Source: Bacteroidota bacterium (GTDB lineage: Bacteria; Bacteroidota; Bacteroidia; Chitinophagales; Chitinophagaceae). From it: a DNA stretch of 64,000 bases. Of the stretch, positions 48,061-60,028 are shown one piece after another. The notes beneath the pieces are model-generated. The model had not been told where the DNA came from. It saw only the letters and a program-made list of their open reading frames with translations, and ran no database searches. How positions within the stretch are numbered: position 1 is the first letter of the stretch; every line of letters starts with the position of its first letter. The stretch covers positions 41,685 to 105,684 of the forward strand of contig JAKQEA010000042.1 of the NCBI GenBank assembly GCA_029558715.1, given 5' to 3'. The position numbers and the translations under genes were made by a program.

Positions 48061-50451
48061 ATGCTAGGCGGCACACCAAATCTTTCTGAACCTGTTTTTA
48101 ATAGTCACTTATCATTCAGACCGCTTGTAAATGCCCTGAAGAAAAATATTGCAGAGGGTAATCCCGGCATGCTGAAGCTGTACGGCAATGTGGTCAGGGA
48201 ATTTGAATCTCATCCGGAATTACTACAGAATATAACAGACCTTAATGTTTTACACCCTTATAGTGAGTTGATTGAAGAACTTCTGTCTGCTGTTTTCCCG
48301 CCCACTACTGCCAATTACATGTACGGCATCTCTTTCCCATTTAAAAACCAGGCTGTTTACGCTTCTCCTTTATTTAAAAGCACCCTGGTAAAAAAGGATA
48401 GCAATGAAATTGTAATAAGAGACGATTCAGCTTCTACACTCAATAATGAAAAACTGCATTTCGCCTATGGTTTGATTCTTAAAAAATACCTGGGGTATAC
48501 CAGTTCCGAAACCTCTAAATCGGTTTATCCATATACAGATGAGAAAACCGGTCTTGCCAGGTACATGGAACTCCGGCTGGACGGTCGCTTTATTGATGTA
48601 AGACCTGTTGATGAGATGCCAGCTATGCCAAAAAGTATTTTGGATTACACGAATAACCGCCTGTTGACCATTGAAGAACTGATGCAGCAGATTCCACTCG
48701 AAAAGTTTGTTTTCGAAGGATTAACAGTTATGAGGATCAATGATATTACAGAACAAGCTGTGATAGCTGAAATGAAGAATAAGCTACTTGATTTTAGTGC
48801 TGTTTCAGATACTACAGCCTACACCGAACTGGAAAGACATATTCAAAACCTGATAGGGTTAAAGGATGTGACTATTGGCCTTACTCCTTTCTTTAAAATA
48901 AACGGACATTACGTTTATTCGGACCTCCACAATAGTAATAGTCTTTTATTCCGGCATCTGAACAGTATTTCGGAAAAAGAAGAAATAAGTGACTATTGCA
49001 AATTACTCTTCCGTGATAATCACCAGCCGGTTTTGTATGAAACGCTGAATGAAGAAATTCTTGGTGAGGTTCAATGCCTGGCATATTATAATAAAGCTGG
49101 CAGTCGTAGCATTATTATATGCCCCCTGAAACAACGGAATGATTTATTGGGTATGCTGGAGATCAGTTCCAGGGAACCAGGATACCTGAAACCTGAGCAT
49201 ATCAGTAAAATAGAAGCCGCATTACCATTGTTTACACTCAGTCTGGAAAAAAGCCTGGAACAACTGAATAACCAGATTGACCGGATGATAAAGAAAAAAT
49301 TTACGGCGGTGCAGCCAGCTGTTGAATGGAAATTCACAGAAGCTTCACTGAATCATATTGTAAATCTGCATGAGAAAAAAGATGCGGGCATAGAACGCAT
49401 CGTTTTCGAAGATGTATTCCCCCTGTATGGGGCCATAGATATACGAGGTTCATCAACAGCCCGTTCCCAGTCTATTCAACTGGATATACTGGAGCAATTG
49501 GAGCTGGCCAGGAAAGTAGTAAGAAAAGCCCAGTCCGCTATGTCTTTCCCTTTATTGCAGGAAATCGAATTCAAGATAGACAGGCATATTGCTGCAGCTT
49601 CTGACATACTGCAATCAGAAGAAGAATTAAATGTGTATGATTTTTTACAGGGACAGGTAATTTCGGTTTTTAATCACTTACGTCACACAGAACCTGCAGT
49701 AAAACATGAGATAGAGGAATATTTTTCTTCCCTCGATCCGCAATTAGGTATGTTATACAAACACCGAAAGGATTACGAGAACAGTGTGTCAATGATCAAC
49801 GATACATTGGCCAGGTTTATAGATAAAGAACAAGCTGCTGCCCAAAAAGTATATCCTCATTATTTTGAAAGATATATTACTGATGGACTTGAGTTCAACA
49901 TTTTTATTGGCCAGGCTATAAGCCCAAGAAAAAAGTTTGATGAAATATACCTGCGGAATATGAAAATGTGGCAGCTCACTGTTATTACTAAAGCAGCCAG
50001 GGTAACCCACAAACTGGAGAGCGAACTAAACCATGTACTGCGTACTACCCAGCTTATCCTTGCACACAGTCAACCCCTGTCGATCAGCTTCCGTACCGAG
50101 GAGCGAAAATTTGATGTGGATGGAACTTATAATACCCGCTACGAAATTGTGAAAAAAAGAATTGATAAGGTACGTATTAAAGACACCACCGAACGCCTTA
50201 CACAGCCGGGCAAGATAGCTATAGTGTATTCACAGGCAAAAGATGCCAATGAATACATTGAATACATTGAGTTCCTGCAAAGTAAAGGCTTATTAAAACC
50301 AACCATCGAAAAACATGACCTGGAAGAGTTACAGGGTGTGATAGGTTTAAAAGCTTTGCGGGTGGATGTATTATTCGAGAACGAAACGGCTGAAATTAAG
50401 TCGCCTCCACTTTCAACCGTTACTGACGAACAGTTGCTGAAAGGAAAATGA
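48061..50451 (+). CDS. Large cytosolic protein with GAF-like segment
   Basis: 796 residues with no signal peptide or transmembrane segment. Residues about 250-410 look like a GAF sensor fold (RSIIICPLKQRNDLLGMLEISS, then the helix EHISKIEAALPLFTLSLEKSLEQL). The region after 420 is helical and I cannot place it in a family. No histidine kinase, cyclase or DNA-binding motif is seen. It is monocistronic and ends at a perfect palindromic terminator. A signalling role is plausible from the GAF-like part only. Confidence 0.65.
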   Translation: MLGGTPNLSEPVFNSHLSFRPLVNALKKNIAEGNPGMLKLYGNVVREFESHPELLQNITDLNVLHPYSELIEELLSAVFPPTTANYMYGISFPFKNQAVYASPLFKSTLVKKDSNEIVIRDDSASTLNNEKLHFAYGLILKKYLGYTSSETSKSVYPYTDEKTGLARYMELRLDGRFIDVRPVDEMPAMPKSILDYTNNRLLTIEELMQQIPLEKFVFEGLTVMRINDITEQAVIAEMKNKLLDFSAVSDTTAYTELERHIQNLIGLKDVTIGLTPFFKINGHYVYSDLHNSNSLLFRHLNSISEKEEISDYCKLLFRDNHQPVLYETLNEEILGEVQCLAYYNKAGSRSIIICPLKQRNDLLGMLEISSREPGYLKPEHISKIEAALPLFTLSLEKSLEQLNNQIDRMIKKKFTAVQPAVEWKFTEASLNHIVNLHEKKDAGIERIVFEDVFPLYGAIDIRGSSTARSQSIQLDILEQLELARKVVRKAQSAMSFPLLQEIEFKIDRHIAAASDILQSEEELNVYDFLQGQVISVFNHLRHTEPAVKHEIEEYFSSLDPQLGMLYKHRKDYENSVSMINDTLARFIDKEQAAAQKVYPHYFERYITDGLEFNIFIGQAISPRKKFDEIYLRNMKMWQLTVITKAARVTHKLESELNHVLRTTQLILAHSQPLSISFRTEERKFDVDGTYNTRYEIVKKRIDKVRIKDTTERLTQPGKIAIVYSQAKDANEYIEYIEFLQSKGLLKPTIEKHDLEELQGVIGLKALRVDVLFENETAEIKSPPLSTVTDEQLLKGK

Positions 50452-50567: not shown

Positions 50568-53147
50568 TTAAAATCTCCAGCCCAGTGTTACTAATGGCAG
50601 TTTATCTTCTTCTGACATTGTATAAACAAAGGATAATAATATCCGGCGCAACGGTGAAACCCATAAGCCCAGGCCATATCCTGAGGCCCACTTTTCAATA
50701 AAATCATTTTTCAGCCAAACCCTGCCAACATCATAATAGGCTCCTATACCAATTGATCCCGGGAAAAGATAGGTTTTAAAATCAGCAATTTTAAAGCGTA
50801 ATTCTGTTTGATTAAAAAATTTCGATTTACCCGCAAATCTTTGCTGACGATACCCTCTCAGGTTATCTTCATTACCCAGGTATTGGGCCTGGAAAAACTC
50901 AAATCCATCTCCCAGGTTTACACCACCGCCCACCCGGTTAGCCAATACCAATCGTCCCGATGAAGGAAGTAAATTGAAATAAAAAGTAAAACTACTGTTC
51001 AATTGTGTCACATTATCGTAGCTATTATCGTTCAATCCATCCAGGTAACGGACACTGCTCACCCAGTTAATTCCCCTATCAGGCAGTACTTTACTGTTCC
51101 TTGTATCAACAATAAAAGAAAATAATCCTCCAAAATAGCTCTGCCTTTTGAACACCTTAGCCGGGTCCAGACCGATAGCCACTGTATTCAATACAATATT
51201 CCTTTGCTGATTCAGCTTGTCATCAGCTTCCATATGATACATCTGGAAAGTGGGACCAAACAAAAAAGATACTTTATCGGAGAACCGGTGACGGAACTGG
51301 ATATTAAAATCTCCAAGATCATATCTGGCACGATAGAACCTGAATTTACCCGGTTGCGTCTTATCGTATACTGAATTCATACCATAACCAAAGAAGTTGG
51401 TAGTGGTGAAAGGACCTTTGTAATCAAAATCCATCACCAGGTCTGTGTTATTACCCATTATACCAATAAACTCGTTGTTGTACCGGATATTTACAGCTTT
51501 AGTGGAAAAAGCATACTTACCCGAAAACTGGTGCAATGACTTGTAAGGATTTTTTCTGAATCCATGGCGGATGAACTTGAAAGTTGGTCCAAGTGATATA
51601 CCATCGTCAGGATTAAATCCTATTGTACCAAAAAAAGATTGATAAGGATACTTATAATATATCCTTTCAAAAGAATTAACGATGGTATCATTAGCCATCC
51701 TGTTTTTAAACGGCCCTTTTACTGTATTGCCTCCATTTAATTTATCATATAAAAGAATACCCCGCTGAGATTTTGCTGTATTATCAAATACATCACCGCC
51801 TCCGCCCCCTATCAACCGTAATTTGATCTTATCATTACTTCCATTTATCTGAAATCTGTCCTCTCCATCCATACCATATAACCTGACTTCTTTTGTAACA
51901 GCAGGATCAAATTTCCTTTCATACATCTTAACCGATTGTTGTCCATCTTTATCGATCTTATACACCTGAACCAGTAAAGAGCCATCCTCATTCCTCTTAA
52001 TATCAAATAATTCTTTTTTATCGCTTCCCGTTACATTAACGATCTCTGAAATAAAACGATGATACTCCATCACCTCAGCTGCCAGGAATTTTCGTCTGTC
52101 TTTAAGCGTTTGTGCAATTTTATTTGCAGAAATACCTCTTATTTCAGCTGGCTGTTGTGCCATTGCCCTGTCAATCACTTCGTCTGTCATTTGAGAAATA
52201 AATTTGTCAACGGCCTGCTTCCAGTCCTGTTCAGTTAACTGGTTCAGAAAAAACCGATCGAGGTTCCTGGCTGCAAAATTAAACCTGCCTATATTGTTTG
52301 CTTCCGCTTTAAAGCCTTCTAATTGAGGAACCAGCGACCTTTTTCTTACAAGTGATGGCAAAACTCCCTGGTTGATATAAAAAGCCTGGTCACGGTCTTT
52401 AGCTATCGGAAAAAATTGTTTTCCTTTTCCATCATTGATATCATTGGCCCCCCACAGCCACTGGCCTTCATGCCTGTCAAGATCCATAACAAACATGTCG
52501 AGTATCCTGATCTTTAATAAGGAAAGCTGATCAACTGTGTTATCATTATCTTTTTCCAGTTTTTCTGCCACTTCATCTGTGTCATATACTTTCTTAATAC
52601 CAGCGGGTTCCCTTTCTTCCAGCGTAGCCAGCATATTAGAGAAGTCCTTACGATGTTCTCCCAGCCTCGGGTCATCTCCGACATATACAAGCTTTACTTT
52701 TCCATACGGAATACCGGCCGCCTCTGCCAGTGGAATAACTGATAAAGAAGCATAAGGATAAGAAGCAGAAACACCGTCAGAAACAAGGTCAGCTGCCGCT
52801 TCACTTTGCAGATCACCGGGCAGTGTTTTTTCAGTAATAAATTTTTGAATAGACCGAAGGACATACTGCCGGCCATCAGGACCTTCCAGCCGAAGTGATT
52901 TGGTTTGCTTTCCTCCTCCTCTTTTAACAGGGGTAAGCCCACCACCTTCAGTAGCAAGGTTTAGTACTGGTGCCTTTACAGGGGTGTTCCATTCCTTTCG
53001 GTAATTAGCGCCCATCCAGAATATGCGTCCTCCGCTGGTGCTGAATGTTGATGCCTTTGCGGCGGTAGAATCAGTGGCTTTTTGTGCTGAACAATAATGT
53101 AGCGGCACGAAAAAGCATGCAAATAGTAGCAGTTTCGTTGGTCTCAT
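50568..53147 (-). CDS. Outer-membrane barrel protein with kinase-like N-terminal region
   Basis: 859 residues. The signal peptide is about 1-21 (HYCSAQ). Residues about 45-360 are homologous to residues 410-730 of the protein at 53491 and carry a kinase-like motif order: Gly-rich GGGKQTKSLRL (77-87), a lysine in LRSIQK (K102), a D-x-D-R-H-x-x-Q-W loop (222-230) and KDRDQAF (250-256). Residues about 405-460 are Gly/Asp-rich beta (RLYGMDGEDRF, IGGGGGDVFD). From about 500 on it is a BamA/TamA-like surface-antigen barrel ending TLGWRF with a terminal Phe. The kinase reading is inference. Confidence 0.75.
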   Translation of the reverse strand: MRPTKLLLFACFFVPLHYCSAQKATDSTAAKASTFSTSGGRIFWMGANYRKEWNTPVKAPVLNLATEGGGLTPVKRGGGKQTKSLRLEGPDGRQYVLRSIQKFITEKTLPGDLQSEAAADLVSDGVSASYPYASLSVIPLAEAAGIPYGKVKLVYVGDDPRLGEHRKDFSNMLATLEEREPAGIKKVYDTDEVAEKLEKDNDNTVDQLSLLKIRILDMFVMDLDRHEGQWLWGANDINDGKGKQFFPIAKDRDQAFYINQGVLPSLVRKRSLVPQLEGFKAEANNIGRFNFAARNLDRFFLNQLTEQDWKQAVDKFISQMTDEVIDRAMAQQPAEIRGISANKIAQTLKDRRKFLAAEVMEYHRFISEIVNVTGSDKKELFDIKRNEDGSLLVQVYKIDKDGQQSVKMYERKFDPAVTKEVRLYGMDGEDRFQINGSNDKIKLRLIGGGGGDVFDNTAKSQRGILLYDKLNGGNTVKGPFKNRMANDTIVNSFERIYYKYPYQSFFGTIGFNPDDGISLGPTFKFIRHGFRKNPYKSLHQFSGKYAFSTKAVNIRYNNEFIGIMGNNTDLVMDFDYKGPFTTTNFFGYGMNSVYDKTQPGKFRFYRARYDLGDFNIQFRHRFSDKVSFLFGPTFQMYHMEADDKLNQQRNIVLNTVAIGLDPAKVFKRQSYFGGLFSFIVDTRNSKVLPDRGINWVSSVRYLDGLNDNSYDNVTQLNSSFTFYFNLLPSSGRLVLANRVGGGVNLGDGFEFFQAQYLGNEDNLRGYRQQRFAGKSKFFNQTELRFKIADFKTYLFPGSIGIGAYYDVGRVWLKNDFIEKWASGYGLGLWVSPLRRILLSFVYTMSEEDKLPLVTLGWRF

Positions 53148-53490
53148 GGTTGCAGTTTTTGATGGTTTGTTTTGAGGTTGGGGACCTTAAGTTCTGATTG
53201 TAAAAGATACACTTTTTTAAATAATGGATAAAATATTAATACATATCAGCAGGAAAAGCAGAATCTGTGGGTTCTGCCCTTTTCTGGCTACCTGACTGGT
53301 TAGAAATCACAGGCTTGGCCATTTTTTGCAAATTCCCTGTTAATGAGGACAAAGTTTTATGTAAATTGAAAACTTTATTTGAGCAGGTTACGTTATATCG
53401 GGGCAGCCTATGCTATCCGGCCTTACCGGCTTTCACCAGTACCGTCATTTGCCATGATAATTTATACTTTAATCAAGATCAGTTTATCGG
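53148..53490. other. Intergenic region between the two divergent barrel-protein genes
   Basis: 343 bp. It must hold both divergent promoters, but I find no clean TTG/TAnnTTTG pair; the nearest is TATCTTTT on the minus strand around 53200. An imperfect hairpin GCAGAA / TTCTGC at 53258-53277, flanked by AAAAG and CTTTT, is the only structure seen. A frame spanning part of the region has no signal or coding character. Confidence 0.4.
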
Positions 53491-56400
53491 GTGCTTAGAA
53501 AAATATATACCGCCTTTATTGGATTGTTGCTACCCTTGCTGAACCTGTCGCTGTGTGCCCAAACAGATACTATAGCTCAGCGAATTATATTAATTGGCGA
53601 TGCTGGTCAGCTGACCAATGGCAAACACCCGGTCGTAGATGCAGTAAAGAAAAATATTACCCTTGATAATAAGACCACTATCTTATTCCTGGGTGATAAT
53701 CTTTATAAAACGGGACTGCCGGATGACCAATATGCCCTTCAGTATACAAGAGGGAAAGCAATTCTCGATTCACAGGTCTCAATAGCTGATGGTACCCCGG
53801 CAAAAGTTTATATGATACCTGGGAACCATGATTGGGACAATGGACGCCGGGGTGGTCTAGATGCTATCATAAGGCAGCAACTCTATATTGAATTTTTACA
53901 GAAACCCAATGTGGACTTTTTCCCTAAAGACGGTTGCCCCGGACCAAAAGAAATACTTATTGGTAACGACATTGCTCTTATTCTGTTCGACAGCCAATGG
54001 TGGCTGCATCCTTATGATAAACCTGAAATAGAATCCGACTGCTCCTGCAAAACAAAAGAAGAATTAGTAACCCAGATAGCCGATATAGCAGCCCGCAACG
54101 CCAAAAAACTAATTATTCTCGCTTGTCATCATCCTTTTAAAAGCAACGGGATGCACGGCGGGTATTATACTATCAAACAGCATATCTTCCCCCTTACTGA
54201 TATAAAAAAGAACCTGTACATTCCATTGCCAGTTATTGGTTCTATTTACCCGATTGCCCGAAGCGTTTTTGGCACACCGCAGGATACTAAACACCCCAAT
54301 TACGCTAACATGATTGACCAGGTGTCGGACGCCATTAAACCCCTTTCCAAAAATATCGTATTCGTATCAGGACATGATCATAACCTACAGCTGATAAAAG
54401 AAAATAATTATAACTATATCGTCAGCGGTGGCGGTTGCAAACAAAACCGTACTTCTCAAAACAAGAATAGTTTTTTTAATTCCACCTCAGAAGGTTTTGC
54501 TGTAATGGAGATATCTACTACTAAGAATGTTTATATCTCATTCTATACTGTATCAGATTCTGTAACAAAGAAATACAATGAACCGTTATTAAACTTCTCT
54601 GCTATAACGGAAAACCCTGAAGGTGAAATTAAACTTACCAGCGATGAACTTAGTAAAGACAAAGTGATAAGACCGGCAAGTAAGAATTTTCCAGTTGCAA
54701 CCGGACTTAAGAAATTTATAATCGGGAATAACTATCGTACTGAATGGTCAACCCCGGTAGAGATGAAGGTCTTCAAGATCAGTGAAGAAAAAGGAGGTCT
54801 TTCCATAATAAGCCTTGGCGGAGGAAAACAAACACAATCATTGCGGCTGAGAGATAAAAATGGAAAAGACTGGATGCTGCGGACAGTGGATAAACTGGCA
54901 ACAAGGGCCATTCCCAAAAACCTGAGAGGAACTTTTGCAGAAGACATCGCACTGGAGTTAAATTCCGCATCTTATCCGTATGCGCCATTAATTATTCCCC
55001 CATTAGCAGATGCTTTAGATATTGCTGCCCCACATCCTAAACTCTTTTTTGTTCCGGACGATCCTGCTTTCGGTGTTTACAGAACAACTTTCGCTAATAA
55101 AGTTTGCATGCTGGAAGAAAGAAATGCCGTAAATGACAGCCTGGAGATGAAATTGATCAGGCAGCTCTTTCACCAGGCGCCTAAAGAAATAAATCTTTCC
55201 AAGGAAACGGATGAAACTAAAACAACGGCGAAGTTTTTTGACAAGATGCTGGAAGAAAACGATCACCGCCCTATACAGGAGGAAGTATTAAAAGCGAGAC
55301 TGCTTGATATAGTAGTGGGTGATTTTGACCGTCATCTTGATCAATGGAGATGGGGAAGTGTGGACACTGGTAAAGGCAAGATTTATTATCCTATTCCCCG
55401 TGACCGGGACCAGGCCTATTTCTATTCTGATGGCTTTTTGCTAAAAGGATTAAGCCGCAGAGCCCTGCCTTTTCTGAAAGGATTCAGGCATGATATTCCT
55501 AAAATCGACTGGCTGGGGTATAGTGCAAAAGATTTTGATCGTCTTTTCCTTACTGACCTGGATGCCGATGAATGGAAAACTATTATAACAGAAACAGGTC
55601 AGAAACTTACCGATTCTGTTATCCGCAAATCAATAAATGAATTACCGCCTGAAATTGCCCGGATAAGCGGAAACACTATTGCTGAAAAAATGATCAGCCG
55701 CCGCAACCTTCTTTCCACAGAAGGAATGAGGTATTATCATTTCATTTCCAAAAAAGTAAATATCCTTGGCAGCAATAAGAAAGAATATTTTAAGGTCAGC
55801 AATTATGGCAATGGCCTGCAGGTAAAAGTATATGCAAGAACAAAGAAGAGTGATACCAGCTTTGTGATGTACAGCCGGGTGTTTGATCCTTCTGTAACAA
55901 AAGAAATAAGACTATACGGACTGCATGATGATGACCTGTTTGAAATTGAAGAAAATGCCGAATCAAGAATTAAGATCCGTATCATAGGTGGAAAAGGATA
56001 TGACACCTTTGATATAAAAGGACATGTAGAAACCTTACTATATGACCTTAGGGATGGCGGAAACCATATCAAAAACAAAAGCCATGCAAAAAACCGTTTT
56101 TCCAATGACGCTCCTGTGAATGATAAAGACATATTTGGTTTCAACTATAATACAACCCGTTTTCCACAGCTGCATTTTGGTCAAAACACTGATGATGGAT
56201 TTTGGATCGGATCTGCTTTTTCAAAAAGAACTTATGGTTTCAGGAACCTGCCTTATGCAACTGATCAAAGATTTTCAGTATCGTATGCAGTTACCCGAAA
56301 GGCATGGCAGTTTAATTATACCGGAGAGTTTAATCATATCTCCCGGAAAACTGACCTGATAGTTAATATCAATTATTCCTCGCCGGCAATAAGAAATTTT

Positions 56401-57216
56401 TTTGGCCTGGGTAATAACTCCGGGATTGATCTCTCAAAAACAAAGGACTTTTATCAAAGCAGGTTTAAACAGTTTGAAGCAACTGCTTTACTGAGAAAAA
56501 GATTTTTTGAAAAACTGCATCTTTTTGCCGGCCCTTATTTTTTTAGCTACCGGAACGATATTACAGACAACAGGAATAATTTCTTTGGTAAACCATCTCA
56601 AAATGGGCTTGATTCAATCACTATTTATAGTAAAAAAGATTACCTGGGCGCTAAGTTTATGATGCTGGTGGATAACCGTAATAATGATTTGTTCCCCACC
56701 CGAGGTATGCACTGGAAAACTGAATTAGTTTCTGCAACAGGGCTTAAAAAAGGCAATCACAACTACACTGCCTTTACGTCTGATATGTCCGTGTATGCCA
56801 GTTTTACTGATCCGGCAAAATTTGTGGCCGTAGTAAAATTTGGCGGCGGACATATTTTCAGTAAAAACTATGAATATTTTCAGGCTCTTACGCTTGGCTC
56901 GGGTAATAACCTCTATGGTTTTAGAAAAAACAGGTTTGCAGGCACTTCTTCTTTATACAGTGGTCTTGAGTTGAGGATAAAACTCTTTGGTATGAGTTCC
57001 AATGTACTGCCTGGCCAGGTTGGATTAACCGCTTTCTATGATGCCGGCAGGGTCTGGCTTCCGGGTGAACGTTCTTCCCGCTGGCATGGAGGATATGGTG
57101 GCGGCCTTTATTTCATGCCATTTAATCTCTTCGTTATATCGGCCAATGCCGGATTTTCTGAAAAAGAAAGGGTCTTTAACTTTACTCTGGCCAAGCGCAT
57201 CAATTATTCTTACTAA
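53491..57216 (+). CDS. Metallophosphatase / kinase-like / outer-membrane barrel fusion protein
   Basis: 1241 residues, GTG start supported by the signal peptide it opens (hydrophobic 8-21, then CAQTD). Residues 30-345 form a calcineurin-like metallophosphatase with all metal motifs: GDAG (35-38), GDN (68-70), GNHD (111-114), H213-H214 and GHDH (294-297). Residues 410-730 match the kinase-like part of the gene at 50568, with a Gly-rich segment (443-453), TVDK (K468), D-x-D-R-H-x-x-Q-W (611-619) and RDRDQAY (637-643). The rest is a BamA/TamA-like barrel. The protein should sit in the outer membrane with its enzymatic domains in the periplasm. Confidence 0.8.
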   Translation: MLRKIYTAFIGLLLPLLNLSLCAQTDTIAQRIILIGDAGQLTNGKHPVVDAVKKNITLDNKTTILFLGDNLYKTGLPDDQYALQYTRGKAILDSQVSIADGTPAKVYMIPGNHDWDNGRRGGLDAIIRQQLYIEFLQKPNVDFFPKDGCPGPKEILIGNDIALILFDSQWWLHPYDKPEIESDCSCKTKEELVTQIADIAARNAKKLIILACHHPFKSNGMHGGYYTIKQHIFPLTDIKKNLYIPLPVIGSIYPIARSVFGTPQDTKHPNYANMIDQVSDAIKPLSKNIVFVSGHDHNLQLIKENNYNYIVSGGGCKQNRTSQNKNSFFNSTSEGFAVMEISTTKNVYISFYTVSDSVTKKYNEPLLNFSAITENPEGEIKLTSDELSKDKVIRPASKNFPVATGLKKFIIGNNYRTEWSTPVEMKVFKISEEKGGLSIISLGGGKQTQSLRLRDKNGKDWMLRTVDKLATRAIPKNLRGTFAEDIALELNSASYPYAPLIIPPLADALDIAAPHPKLFFVPDDPAFGVYRTTFANKVCMLEERNAVNDSLEMKLIRQLFHQAPKEINLSKETDETKTTAKFFDKMLEENDHRPIQEEVLKARLLDIVVGDFDRHLDQWRWGSVDTGKGKIYYPIPRDRDQAYFYSDGFLLKGLSRRALPFLKGFRHDIPKIDWLGYSAKDFDRLFLTDLDADEWKTIITETGQKLTDSVIRKSINELPPEIARISGNTIAEKMISRRNLLSTEGMRYYHFISKKVNILGSNKKEYFKVSNYGNGLQVKVYARTKKSDTSFVMYSRVFDPSVTKEIRLYGLHDDDLFEIEENAESRIKIRIIGGKGYDTFDIKGHVETLLYDLRDGGNHIKNKSHAKNRFSNDAPVNDKDIFGFNYNTTRFPQLHFGQNTDDGFWIGSAFSKRTYGFRNLPYATDQRFSVSYAVTRKAWQFNYTGEFNHISRKTDLIVNINYSSPAIRNFFGLGNNSGIDLSKTKDFYQSRFKQFEATALLRKRFFEKLHLFAGPYFFSYRNDITDNRNNFFGKPSQNGLDSITIYSKKDYLGAKFMMLVDNRNNDLFPTRGMHWKTELVSATGLKKGNHNYTAFTSDMSVYASFTDPAKFVAVVKFGGGHIFSKNYEYFQALTLGSGNNLYGFRKNRFAGTSSLYSGLELRIKLFGMSSNVLPGQVGLTAFYDAGRVWLPGERSSRWHGGYGGGLYFMPFNLFVISANAGFSEKERVFNFTLAKRINYSY

Positions 57217-57231
57217 TATCGGGCTTTTGGC

Positions 57232-57888
57232 ATGAAATCAGTCAAAACAATACACGGCGGCAATAAGATCATTGCCGGATCAGTTATCTCTTCCACTGTA
57301 TTACTATCCTTCATTTTTTCTTCTGTATTCTTTAATAATGAACCGTCTATTGACAAGGAAGCTTTTGCAGCTATTTCACCTTATATCGCTTCGGGTACTA
57401 CCCGGGTAATGACTTTTATTTCCTTTCTGGGTAAACACAGTTTTCTTATACCGGCAAACCTGCTGTTGATTCTGGTGTTTATGTTGCTAAAGAAAAAATG
57501 GATGGCGGTAAGGGTGGTACTTATTTCTTTAAGCAGCCTTGGATTAATGTCTTTATTAAAAAACCTGCTGAAGCGGCAACGTCCGCCCGATCCTCTTATT
57601 GAAGGTATTACCAATTTTAGCTTTCCCAGCGGGCATGCTTTTATGAGCATGGCTTTTTACGGATTACTGATCTGGTTTACGATAGTAAGTAGTAAAAACA
57701 AATGGCAAAAGAATTCTATCATTATTTTCCTTTCAGCATTGATCCTTGCTATTAGCTTCAGTCGTATTTACCTGCGGGTCCATTATGCTACTGATGTAGT
57801 GGCCGGTCTCTTAATTGGTTTTTTATGGCTTATAGCCTGCCTGTTTATTATTCAGAAAATAGAATCACGGTTTATAAACAAATCGTAG
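57232..57888 (+). CDS. PAP2-family membrane phosphatase
   Basis: 218 residues with about six transmembrane helices. The three-part phosphatase signature is complete: K-x6-RP (KNLLKRQRPP), PSGH, and SR-x5-H-x3-D (SRIYLRVHYATD). Members act on phosphatidate, phosphatidylglycerol phosphate or undecaprenyl diphosphate at the periplasmic face. It starts 15 bp after the metallophosphatase/barrel gene, so the two phosphatases share a transcript. The 3' end overlaps the convergent gene by 24 bp. Confidence 0.9.
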   Translation: MKSVKTIHGGNKIIAGSVISSTVLLSFIFSSVFFNNEPSIDKEAFAAISPYIASGTTRVMTFISFLGKHSFLIPANLLLILVFMLLKKKWMAVRVVLISLSSLGLMSLLKNLLKRQRPPDPLIEGITNFSFPSGHAFMSMAFYGLLIWFTIVSSKNKWQKNSIIIFLSALILAISFSRIYLRVHYATDVVAGLLIGFLWLIACLFIIQKIESRFINKS

Positions 57889-58725
57889 GATAGTAGCTTT
57901 CCCTGTTACTCCTTCATTGGAAATATACATATCACCATTAGATTTAAAAGTAAGTCCTTCCGGCTGAGGAAATAGTTTTTTGCCAAGTTCTGTAACAGTT
58001 TCTACTTTGCCATTAAGACCGGCTATTGCCAGTTGGTTACTGGCAGAAGAAACAATAAACAGTTTTTTTAATACAGGGTGTATAGCTGCTGCTGAAGGCT
58101 GAAATTTTGATGTTTTGTGAGGAGAAAGGTTTCTCACTTCATCCGCATCAATAGTATACAGCGGGCTGTTATCAAATCCTGTTGAATCCAGGTAAAAAGC
58201 AAAAGTACTTACTGATGATTTATTATCCATTTCACAGTTTTTGCAGATAAGCACCAATGCGTTACGGGCAGGGTCGTAGTACATGGCTTCAAAATCATTG
58301 GTGCCGGTAATACCAAGTTTACCTATCTCGTGTCCGTACACTTTCCCGGTGCTGTCCTTAATAACTTTTGTAATCATTCCGTCACTTCGCAAAACATATG
58401 GCACACTGTTTACCAAAACCACATCTTCATAGTCTCCTTTATTCCCAAAAGTATATTCAGCTTTTATGGCCTTACTCTCTTTATCCAAATAGTATATTTT
58501 TCCTGCTTCATCATAATGGGCCACAAATTCATCTTTCCTGTTATCCCAGGCAAGGCCGGATATTTCCCTGAGCTTTAAATCTAATTTGTGAGTGAATACT
58601 TCTGAAAAATTATAATGCGGCGGCGATTTTATTATACGGGGTTTTTTCCCTTTACAAGCAGATTGCGATATGCCAATCAATAAAGCCAGGAAAGAGAATA
58701 GGAACGATAAATTAAAAAATCTCAT
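57865..58725 (-). CDS. SdiA-regulated-type beta-propeller lipoprotein
   Basis: 286 residues. It has a lipoprotein-like signal with candidate C24 (SQSAC; the -3 residue is unusual), then a propeller-like domain with LREISGLAWDNRKDEFVAHYDEAGKIYYL, GTNDFEAMYYD, FQPSAAAIHP and PQPEGLTFKSNGDMYISNE, typical of the SdiA-regulated/esterase-like phytase group. The biochemical role is not established; some relatives are phytase-like. The gene is divergent from the HD/Pycsar gene with a 46-bp AT-rich gap. Confidence 0.8.
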   Translation of the reverse strand: MRFFNLSFLFSFLALLIGISQSACKGKKPRIIKSPPHYNFSEVFTHKLDLKLREISGLAWDNRKDEFVAHYDEAGKIYYLDKESKAIKAEYTFGNKGDYEDVVLVNSVPYVLRSDGMITKVIKDSTGKVYGHEIGKLGITGTNDFEAMYYDPARNALVLICKNCEMDNKSSVSTFAFYLDSTGFDNSPLYTIDADEVRNLSPHKTSKFQPSAAAIHPVLKKLFIVSSASNQLAIAGLNGKVETVTELGKKLFPQPEGLTFKSNGDMYISNEGVTGKATILRFVYKP

Positions 58726-58771
58726 TCTTTTAATTTTTATTAAATTTATTAAAAGTTATCTGTATAACACG

Positions 58772-60028
58772 ATGGAAAATCAGGCTGCTCTTCTGAAGGA
58801 TGCCCAGGACTTTGCTTCCAACCTTATTACGACCAGGGTTGGCAAATCTGTTACATTTCATACGCTTCAGCACACCCGGGAAGTAGTGGCCGCCTGTGAA
58901 AAGATAGCGGAAAATGTACAGTTGCCTGAAGAAGATAAGCTGGCACTATATATATCCGCCTGGTTTCATGATACTGGCTATAGCGCCGGGCAGGCAAAAG
59001 ATCATGAAATTGTAAGTGTGCAGCATGCCGTTGATTTCCTGAATGCACATGGTATAACCGGAGGGTTGATTAATAAAGTCACGGGATGTATCGTTGCTAC
59101 CCGCATGCCCCAAAATCCTTTGACCCTGATTGAACAGATCATCTGTGATGCCGACCTGTTTCATTTAGGAGCAGATAATTTCAAAGAAAAAAGCAGGTTG
59201 CTAAGAGAAGAGTTAAAAGGATTTGGTGGTGAAGACCTTTCTAAAAAAGAATGGCGGCAGAACAATATCGCTTTTCTGGAAGCACATAAATATTTCACTC
59301 CCTATGGACAAAAAAACCTGCAACCCGTAAAAGAAAAGTACCTGGTTGAATTAAAAGAAAAAAAACCAGCAGATATGGCTAAACCTGAAAAAAAGGAAAA
59401 AGAAAAAAAATCCAAAGAGCCAGAACTAAATGAACAGGCTGCAGCGGATGCCAAAGCAAAAAAGGCAAAAGAAAATCAAACCGAAAGGGGTATCAATACG
59501 GTATTCCGTATTATGGCGCAAACACAAAATAACCTGAGCCAGATGGCCGATTCAAAAGCCAATATACTCATCTCTGTGAATGCGATCATACTCTCTATTG
59601 TTATTTCCTCACTTTTTACAGAGCTTCAAAAAAATCCGAATCTGAAGATACCCGTTATGTTATTGGTTACCCTTTGTGTGGTGGTAATTGTTTTTGCAAT
59701 CCTGGCTACCCGGCCCAATGTCAACCACGGCACTTTTACGCAGGATGATATCCATAATAAAAAGACCAATCTGTTATTTTTCGGCAATTTCTATAAAATG
59801 AGCTTGCAGGATTATGACTGGGCCATGCTGGAAATGCTGAACGATAAGAATTATCTGTACGGCAGTATTGTGAAGGATAATTATTTCTTAGGTGTTGTAC
59901 TGGCAAAAAAATACAAGCTGCTGCGTATTGCCTATAATATTTTTATGTATGGCCTTATTATTACTATGATCGCATTTGCCATAGCAGGTATGATTCCGGA
60001 AGCAGGTGAAGTATACACTCCCGGTTAA
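58772..60028 (+). CDS. HD phosphohydrolase fused to a Pycsar-effector-type membrane domain
   Basis: 418 residues from the ATG at 58772; an upstream in-frame ATG at 58670 lies inside the divergent gene and adds unconserved residues. The N-terminal HD domain (about 20-175) has metal ligands H34, H66-D67 and D126. A K/E/A-rich linker follows (about 190-238), then the PycTM/DUF5706-type domain (about 240-405; GINTVFRIMAQTQNNLSQMAD, SKANILISVNAIILSIVIS) with three or four membrane helices. In Pycsar defence the effector senses cUMP or cCMP and damages the membrane. Here no cyclase gene is adjacent. Ends at a strong terminator. Confidence 0.88.
   Translation: MENQAALLKDAQDFASNLITTRVGKSVTFHTLQHTREVVAACEKIAENVQLPEEDKLALYISAWFHDTGYSAGQAKDHEIVSVQHAVDFLNAHGITGGLINKVTGCIVATRMPQNPLTLIEQIICDADLFHLGADNFKEKSRLLREELKGFGGEDLSKKEWRQNNIAFLEAHKYFTPYGQKNLQPVKEKYLVELKEKKPADMAKPEKKEKEKKSKEPELNEQAAADAKAKKAKENQTERGINTVFRIMAQTQNNLSQMADSKANILISVNAIILSIVISSLFTELQKNPNLKIPVMLLVTLCVVVIVFAILATRPNVNHGTFTQDDIHNKKTNLLFFGNFYKMSLQDYDWAMLEMLNDKNYLYGSIVKDNYFLGVVLAKKYKLLRIAYNIFMYGLIITMIAFAIAGMIPEAGEVYTPG

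What the first reader, a model, noticed from the sequence alone, without database searches (positions are those of the whole stretch)
50568..57216. Paralogous outer-membrane proteins with an atypical kinase-like motif set
Seen: two divergent genes share a ~320-residue region with a Gly-rich GGGKQT stretch, a conserved Lys (LRSIQK / LRTVDK), D-x-D-R-H-x-x-Q-W, and then [KR]DRDQA[FY]. This order resembles the nucleotide Lys, the catalytic DRHxxN-type loop and the metal-binding Asp motif of HipA/FAM20/PI4K-type kinases. Both continue into a BamA/TamA-like barrel; one has an N-terminal metallophosphatase with all metal motifs. Inferred: a phosphotransfer domain and a phosphatase on the periplasmic side of an outer-membrane protein. 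As there is no known periplasmic ATP pool, the donor, or another reaction, is open.
Basis: partly seen in the sequence, partly recalled or inferred. Interest (0 to 1): 0.75.

Follow-up and report, generated by a model that had tools for sequence, protein, structure and literature searches.

The report
Outer-membrane kinases linked to polyphosphate genes
Two neighbouring genes encode proteins with a predicted outer-membrane barrel and a domain predicted to fold like an atypical kinase, which likely acts in the periplasm (one protein also carries a phosphatase-family domain); relatives were found in 110 of 296 sampled genomes of the same phylum, often near a polyphosphate kinase gene, and the kinase-like part matched no Pfam or NCBIfam family with confidence.

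Summary
The 859-aa and 1241-aa proteins are head-to-head paralogues, 37% identical over 849 alignment columns. Their shared ~330-residue domain has no confident Pfam or NCBIfam match. Its model (pLDDT 89) matches protein-kinase-like folds best: CtkA, Golgi casein kinase, PI4KII, CotH, HipA. The C-terminus is a predicted 16-stranded Omp85 barrel with no evident POTRA domain. New here: linkage to polyphosphate kinase 1, within 20 kb in 35 of 110 genomes (2 expected), and in 23 versus 1 of 80 for a recA control, sometimes in one operon-like run; not in the window's own genome. A 2014 survey already listed 'Metallo' Omp85 proteins, calling the phosphatase domain a metalloprotease and not mentioning a kinase. 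Phosphotransfer, donor, substrate and location are untested.

The parts
50568..53147 (-). 859-aa protein: signal peptide, kinase-like domain, all-beta segment, Omp85 barrel
53082..53147 (-). signal-peptide-like N-terminus (residues 1-22)
   Evidence: by eye from the sequence; no predictor was run
52047..53036 (-). kinase-like domain, residues 38-367 (38-372 were folded)
   Evidence: model pLDDT 89, pTM 0.89; fold searches
52902..52919 (-). Gly-rich loop G77-T82 (GGGKQT)
   Evidence: domain G41 is G in 363 of 368; lies between strands 72-77 and 84-88
52842..52856 (-). R98 and K102 (LRSIQK)
   Evidence: R 363 of 368, K 364 of 368; R98 aligns with the HipA nucleotide Lys
52452..52484 (-). candidate catalytic loop D222-L-D224-R-H226-x-x-Q229-W-x-W232
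   Evidence: D222 366, D224 356, H226 360, Q229 363 of 368
52389..52397 (-). candidate metal-binding D251-R-D253
   Evidence: D 364 and 363 of 368; DRDQAF falls on CotH WDxDxxF in hhalign (weak)
51717..52043 (-). all-beta segment, residues 369-477, before the barrel
   Evidence: secondary structure of the model; not searched on its own
50577..51644 (-). Omp85-type barrel with 16 long strands, residues 502-857
53491..57216 (+). 1241-aa protein: signal peptide, metallophosphatase, kinase-like domain, Omp85 barrel
53581..54525 (+). metallophosphatase domain (PF00149; nearest solved sequences GAP50 and purple/tartrate-resistant acid phosphatases, matched over a short stretch)
54700..55755 (+). kinase-like domain, residues 404-755
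   Evidence: 41% identical to the 859-aa copy
55321..55344 (+). candidate catalytic loop D611-F-D613-R-H615-x-x-Q618
   Evidence: alignment
55402..55410 (+). candidate metal-binding D638-R-D640
   Evidence: alignment
56152..57198 (+). Omp85 barrel, residues about 888-1236
   Evidence: PF01103 over 953-1207; limits taken from alignment with the 859-aa barrel
57232..57888 (+). PAP2-superfamily phosphatase, 15 bases downstream on the same strand
   Evidence: PF01569, E 2.3e-20
57865..58725 (-). SdiA-regulated-family protein, recurrent partner
   Evidence: PF06977, E 1.6e-09; directly upstream of the kinase gene on the same strand in 23 instances among 100 loci, but not in that arrangement here
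58670..60028 (+). HD domain plus PycTM membrane domain, recurrent neighbour; the true start is probably downstream of 58670
48061..50451 (+). 796-aa protein without a Pfam family over its cut-off, recurrent neighbour

Best explanation
Each of the two genes encodes a protein with a predicted Omp85-type outer-membrane barrel and a domain predicted to have an atypical kinase fold, which likely faces the periplasm and likely transfers phosphate to a protein, lipid or glycan of the cell envelope. Inferred steps: the barrel serves mainly as an anchor, by analogy with the patatin-Omp85 protein PlpD. D224/D613 acts as the catalytic base, D251 and D253 (D638 and D640) bind metal, and R98/R464 takes the place of the usual nucleotide Lys. 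The donor is most simply ATP, which has been reported in the periplasm. In the 1241-aa protein the metallophosphatase domain would remove phosphate from the same or a related substrate. The conserved link with polyphosphate kinase 1, an SdiA-regulated-family protein and an HD-PycTM protein places the system in phosphate or polyphosphate physiology. Shown here: the sequences, conservation, domain order and gene linkage; the folds rest on predicted models. Not shown: activity, donor, substrate, location.
Against: No activity data. Sequence-level links are weak: hhalign gives CotH E 0.046 and HipA 0.34, against 0.44 for an unrelated control; the profile of barrel-less members finds CtkA only at E 0.62, second to urocanase. 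Foldseek TM-scores are 0.34-0.50 with rmsd 7.6-12.2 A for the five best hits, and only the first has E under 0.001. A PADLOC model of another family, KwaB, matches residues 298-433 of the 859-aa protein at E 0.0029, partly within the domain. The usual nucleotide Lys looks replaced. 12 of 368 copies lack the candidate base Asp, and several full-length copies (L040, L042, L044-L047) have lost motif residues. In the window's own genome both ppk1 copies are on other contigs, and 75 of 110 genomes show no ppk1 within 20 kb on the same contig.
Confidence: 0.55

Rival explanations
1. A kinase fold that does something else: AMP or another group transfer (as recalled for SelO), or a binding-only regulatory domain.
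For: Arg at the nucleotide-Lys position and Q for the catalytic-loop Asn; natural DWSRR and DWGRH copies that lack the base Asp.
Against: Metal Asps and the base Asp are each kept in over 96% of 368 copies, which would be unusual for a binding-only domain.
Confidence: 0.2
2. An outer-membrane assembly or translocation factor of the Omp85 type, whose N-terminal domains only bind clients.
For: Omp85 barrel; Heinz and Lithgow 2014 suggested periplasmic quality control for 'Metallo' and membrane-protein biogenesis for 'noNterm' Omp85 proteins (PMC4104836, passages).
Against: No POTRA domain evident; relatives of the domain exist without a barrel; active-site residues are conserved; linkage is to ppk1.
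Confidence: 0.1
3. The protein uses polyphosphate instead of ATP, as a periplasmic polyphosphate-driven kinase or a phosphate-scavenging enzyme.
For: Operon-like runs with PPK1, Ppx/GppA next to ppk1 in L165 and a histidine phosphatase (SixA-like by my reading) beside ppk1 in L167, fused metallophosphatase and adjacent PAP2 in the window.
Against: PPK1 is a cytoplasmic enzyme (recalled); I know of no route for polyphosphate to the periplasm and did not search for one; no ppk1 beside the window genes.
Confidence: 0.12

Closest known systems
'Metallo' and 'noNterm' Omp85 subfamilies (Heinz and Lithgow 2014, PMC4104836)
   Same: Omp85 barrel with an N-terminal PF00149 domain; the paper notes that the noNterm barrels resemble those of the Metallo group (passages)
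   Different: The paper calls PF00149 a metalloprotease; in its main text the words kinase and phosphatase were not found. Whether its sequences include these proteins could not be checked.
PlpD / patatin-Omp85 proteins (PMC11116518, passages)
   Same: N-terminal enzyme domain on a 16-stranded Omp85 barrel, enzyme in the periplasm
   Different: Patatin lipase instead of a kinase fold; PlpD has one POTRA domain, none is evident here
CotH spore-coat kinases (PF08757)
   Different: No Pfam match in the 30 members tried; CotH acts on spore coat proteins (PMC7821199, listing and passages)
CtkA, HipA and HipT kinases
   Same: Fold; [ND]-x-D-x-H-x-x-[NQ] loop in register (HipA); CtkA is the top profile and Foldseek hit
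   Different: Exported and mostly barrel-linked here; Arg for the nucleotide Lys; no HipA_C match
FAM20 secretory kinases and PI4K type II
   Same: Fold among the top Foldseek hits; FAM20 too works outside the cytosol (recalled)
   Different: No sequence-level match; eukaryotic; different architecture

Membership tests
Protein-kinase-like (PKL) fold | two-lobed kinase fold | tested here: met
Protein-kinase-like (PKL) fold | catalytic-loop Asp and metal-binding Asp | tested here: met
   D187 356, D214 364, D216 363 of 368; D187 in register with the HipA Asp, 17 of 17; D214 and D216 not placed consistently on HipA
Protein-kinase-like (PKL) fold | nucleotide-binding Lys in strand 3 | tested here: inconclusive
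   Arg at the position aligned with the HipA Lys; a conserved Lys four residues on
Protein-kinase-like (PKL) fold | phosphotransfer activity | not testable with these tools
   needs purified protein
CotH (PF08757) | match to the curated Pfam model | tested here: not met
   none of 30 members, E up to 10, subject to HMMER filters
HipA (PF07804) | match to the curated Pfam model | tested here: not met
   none of 30 members; one source names a relative, P0231, a HipA domain-containing protein
FAM20 / PI3_PI4 kinase Pfam families | match to the curated Pfam models | tested here: not met
   none of 30 members
Omp85 superfamily | 16-stranded barrel | tested here: met
Omp85 superfamily | at least one POTRA domain (usual) | tested here: inconclusive
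   no POTRA match at E <= 1 in Pfam and residues 369-477 modelled as all-beta, but that segment was not searched on its own
Omp85 superfamily | (V/I)RG(F/Y)-type loop motif (motif recalled) | tested here: inconclusive
   family consensus NLRGFR; NLRGYR in the 859-aa protein, NLYGFR without the Arg in the 1241-aa one
Omp85 'Metallo' subfamily | PF00149 domain plus Omp85 barrel | tested here: met
   1241-aa protein only; membership in the paper's own set not checked
Calcineurin-like metallophosphoesterase | metal-ligand motifs | tested here: met
   all in the window copy; ligands D37, D69, N112, H213/H214, H295 and H297 kept in 61-65 of 70 aligned rows, window counted twice and two other pairs identical

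The most novel reading that the evidence does not exclude
A phylum-wide family of outer-membrane kinases works outside the cytoplasm on phosphate drawn from the polyphosphate economy: PPK1, encoded in the same gene run, feeds a periplasmic pool of phosphate donor, the barrel-anchored kinase phosphorylates the cell envelope, and the fused metallophosphatase and neighbouring PAP2 enzyme reset it and recover phosphate.
Probability: 0.12. Interest if true: 0.9.

Novelty: new variant of a known kind. Interest (0 to 1): 0.62.

Why it matters
If active, these would be kinases anchored in the outer membrane and working in a compartment where protein or lipid phosphorylation is hardly known (my understanding, not searched in depth). 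The family is common in its phylum and has natural inactive-looking copies beside intact ones. It would correct a published domain label (metalloprotease for a phosphatase-family domain) and may fill in the N-terminus of Omp85 proteins described as lacking one. The ppk1 link gives a direct genetic handle on what it does.

Tried and rejected
Pfam and NCBIfam on the domain gave no confident family: 30 members against Pfam, six families with one member each, best E 0.035 (DUF4032); 82 members against NCBIfam, eleven families with one member each, best E 0.02. phmmer of the whole proteins against the PDB found no kinase. hhalign against CotH and HipA alignments stayed near the noise. Membership in HipA or CotH was rejected on this. 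An anti-phage role was considered because of the PycTM neighbour: PADLOC gives KwaB (E 0.0029) for the 859-aa protein and an 'Endonuclease' effector model (1.4e-05) over residues 84-138 of the 1241-aa one, within its phosphatase domain; I take both as unspecific. Plasmid carriage is rare: 5 of 72,556 records with the 859-aa protein as query. Papers: ten searches, one on periplasmic ATP and the rest for earlier descriptions or related families. In the listed rows, which for searches are only the top of the hits, no paper on a kinase domain in an Omp85 protein was seen; only open-licence PMC papers are held. Seen as found passages: PMC4104836, PMC11116518, PMC7432876, PMC6335424, PMC7821199, PMC9758233, PMC10281475; of these PMC6335424, PMC9758233 and PMC10281475 are not used. 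All others: listings only. No structure was predicted for the metallophosphatase domain; orientation between domains could not be measured.

Rows dropped or approximated before counts; 385 aligned segments, 373 distinct, 368 covering over 80% of positions; 240 of the searched proteins came from similarity searches, so they are not an independent sample; 69 ORFs over 1100 aa plus the window copy, so the window counts twice; two more pairs are the same sequence; 137 rows after leaving out open-ended and short ones; the window's 1241-aa copy is not in that tree, one row labelled without phosphatase (L099, 1179 aa) may hold a diverged one, and one 'barrel-less' row (L066) looks like a split barrel gene; one ppk1 row under the cut-off (G198) and, nine weak recA rows and a second piece of one SdiA row were left out; the place of the window's 1241-aa copy was rounded. 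Expected numbers ignore contig breaks and shared descent; one family (f23) gives 18 of the 35 genomes. One search kept the best 80 of 585 relatives, itself a capped list.
Full report
What is there. Two divergent genes, 50568-53147 (-) and 53491-57216 (+), encode 859 and 1241 residues, 37% identical over 849 alignment columns. They are the only two copies found in the window's assembly. Its phylum is not named by the tools; I infer Bacteroidota from named relatives. Both proteins start with what looks by eye like a signal peptide. Order in the 859-aa protein: kinase-like domain 38-367, all-beta segment 369-477, barrel 502-857. The 1241-aa protein adds a metallophosphatase domain in front (PF00149; nearest solved sequences are GAP50 and tartrate-resistant or purple acid phosphatases).

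Active site. Among 368 distinct near-complete domains, in domain numbering (add 37 for the 859-aa protein): R61 363, K65 364, E140 367, D185 366, D187 356, R188 366, H189 360, Q192 363, D214 364, D216 363. Two MAFFT settings with 30 domains and 17 HipA domains put D187 on the HipA Asp, H189 on its His, Q192 on its Asn, D185 on another Asn, and R61 on its Lys (17 of 17 each); D214 and D216 were not placed consistently. So the base and metal residues are there, but the nucleotide Lys appears to be an Arg, with K65 nearby. In CotH, a D228Q variant is described as catalytically inactive (PMC7821199, passages). Copies that lack D187 exist (12 of 368): two DWSRR lipoprotein-like members (L033, L034) beside intact ones, DWGRH members, and degenerate full-length ones.

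Spread and shape. 110 of 296 genomes drawn across the phylum have the domain at E <= 0.001 with the 859-aa copy as query. A named-genome scan kept the best 80 of 585 relatives; by title they are Bacteroidota apart from one Calditrichaceae MAG. In a tree of 137 domains, the phosphatase domain was detected in 69, the barrel without it in 52 and neither in 16; the three states need 15 changes, and well-supported branches force at least 9 for the phosphatase domain (caveats under Tried and rejected). The kinase-like domain is the constant part of this set by construction; the other parts come and go.

Neighbours. In the 80 named loci: HD-PycTM gene in 43, SdiA-regulated in 24 (21 within 60 bases on the same strand), PPK1 in 19, the 796-aa-type gene in 19, PAP2 in 6. 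Over 110 genomes, ppk1 lies within 5 kb of a kinase gene in 15 (0.51 expected), within 10 kb in 18 (1.02), within 20 kb in 35 (2.03), in 11 of 24 families. In the same 80 genomes: ppk1 23, recA 1, SdiA-regulated 19 within 20 kb. The same-strand run HD-PycTM, PPK1, SdiA-regulated, kinase occurs in 7 instances among 100 loci and in L168. Ppx/GppA lies beside ppk1 in L165, a histidine phosphatase (SixA-like by my reading) in L167, and an App1 phosphatidate phosphatase in L166. Against this, the window's own ppk1 genes are on other contigs, and 75 of 110 genomes show no ppk1 within 20 kb on the same contig.

How it most likely works. An exported kinase, held at the inner face of the outer membrane by the barrel, phosphorylates an envelope component, with the fused phosphatase as its reverse arm in some members. 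A review cites 24 +/- 3 uM ATP per 10^10 bacteria in the periplasm of E. coli given external ATP (PMC7432876, passages), so ATP as donor is possible. The ppk1 link suggests phosphate or polyphosphate physiology and leaves open polyphosphate as donor. Activity, donor, substrate and location are all untested.

What was known. Heinz and Lithgow (PMC4104836, passages) list a 'Metallo' Omp85 subfamily with PF00149, described as a metalloprotease, and a 'noNterm' subfamily with similar barrels. It is plausible that the second includes proteins of the 859-aa type whose kinase-like domain had no model; I could not check the sequence lists. Ten searches of the open-licence library, not all aimed at this question and several with capped lists, showed no paper on a kinase domain attached to an Omp85 barrel.

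Verdict. Observation confirmed; kinase-like reading partly supported, with fold and conservation in favour and function open. New variant of a known kind, interest 0.62.

Noticed in passing
window 58670-60028: HD domain fused to a PycTM domain (PF18967, E 1.2e-34). In 16 of 80 named loci a gene cluster represented by L097 3206-4492, a Guanylate_cyc-domain cyclase matching PADLOC PycC models, lies in the same locus, so a Pycsar-like pairing is possible.
   Followed up: partly
window 48061-50451: 796-aa protein with no Pfam family over its cut-off that recurs beside the kinase genes, in 19 of 80 named loci.
   Followed up: no
L033:1684-2808 and L166:4527-5549: App1-type phosphatidate phosphatase (PF09949) near kinase-like lipoproteins in one genome and directly beside ppk1 in another.
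   Followed up: partly
L035, L036, L037, L038: The 423-425-aa membrane-anchored members without a barrel end in a C-F-[ED]-C motif.
   Followed up: no
L033:7439-9148, L034:4436-6055: Copies with DWSRR in place of DWDRH stand next to intact copies, as if active and inactive kinases were paired.
   Followed up: partly
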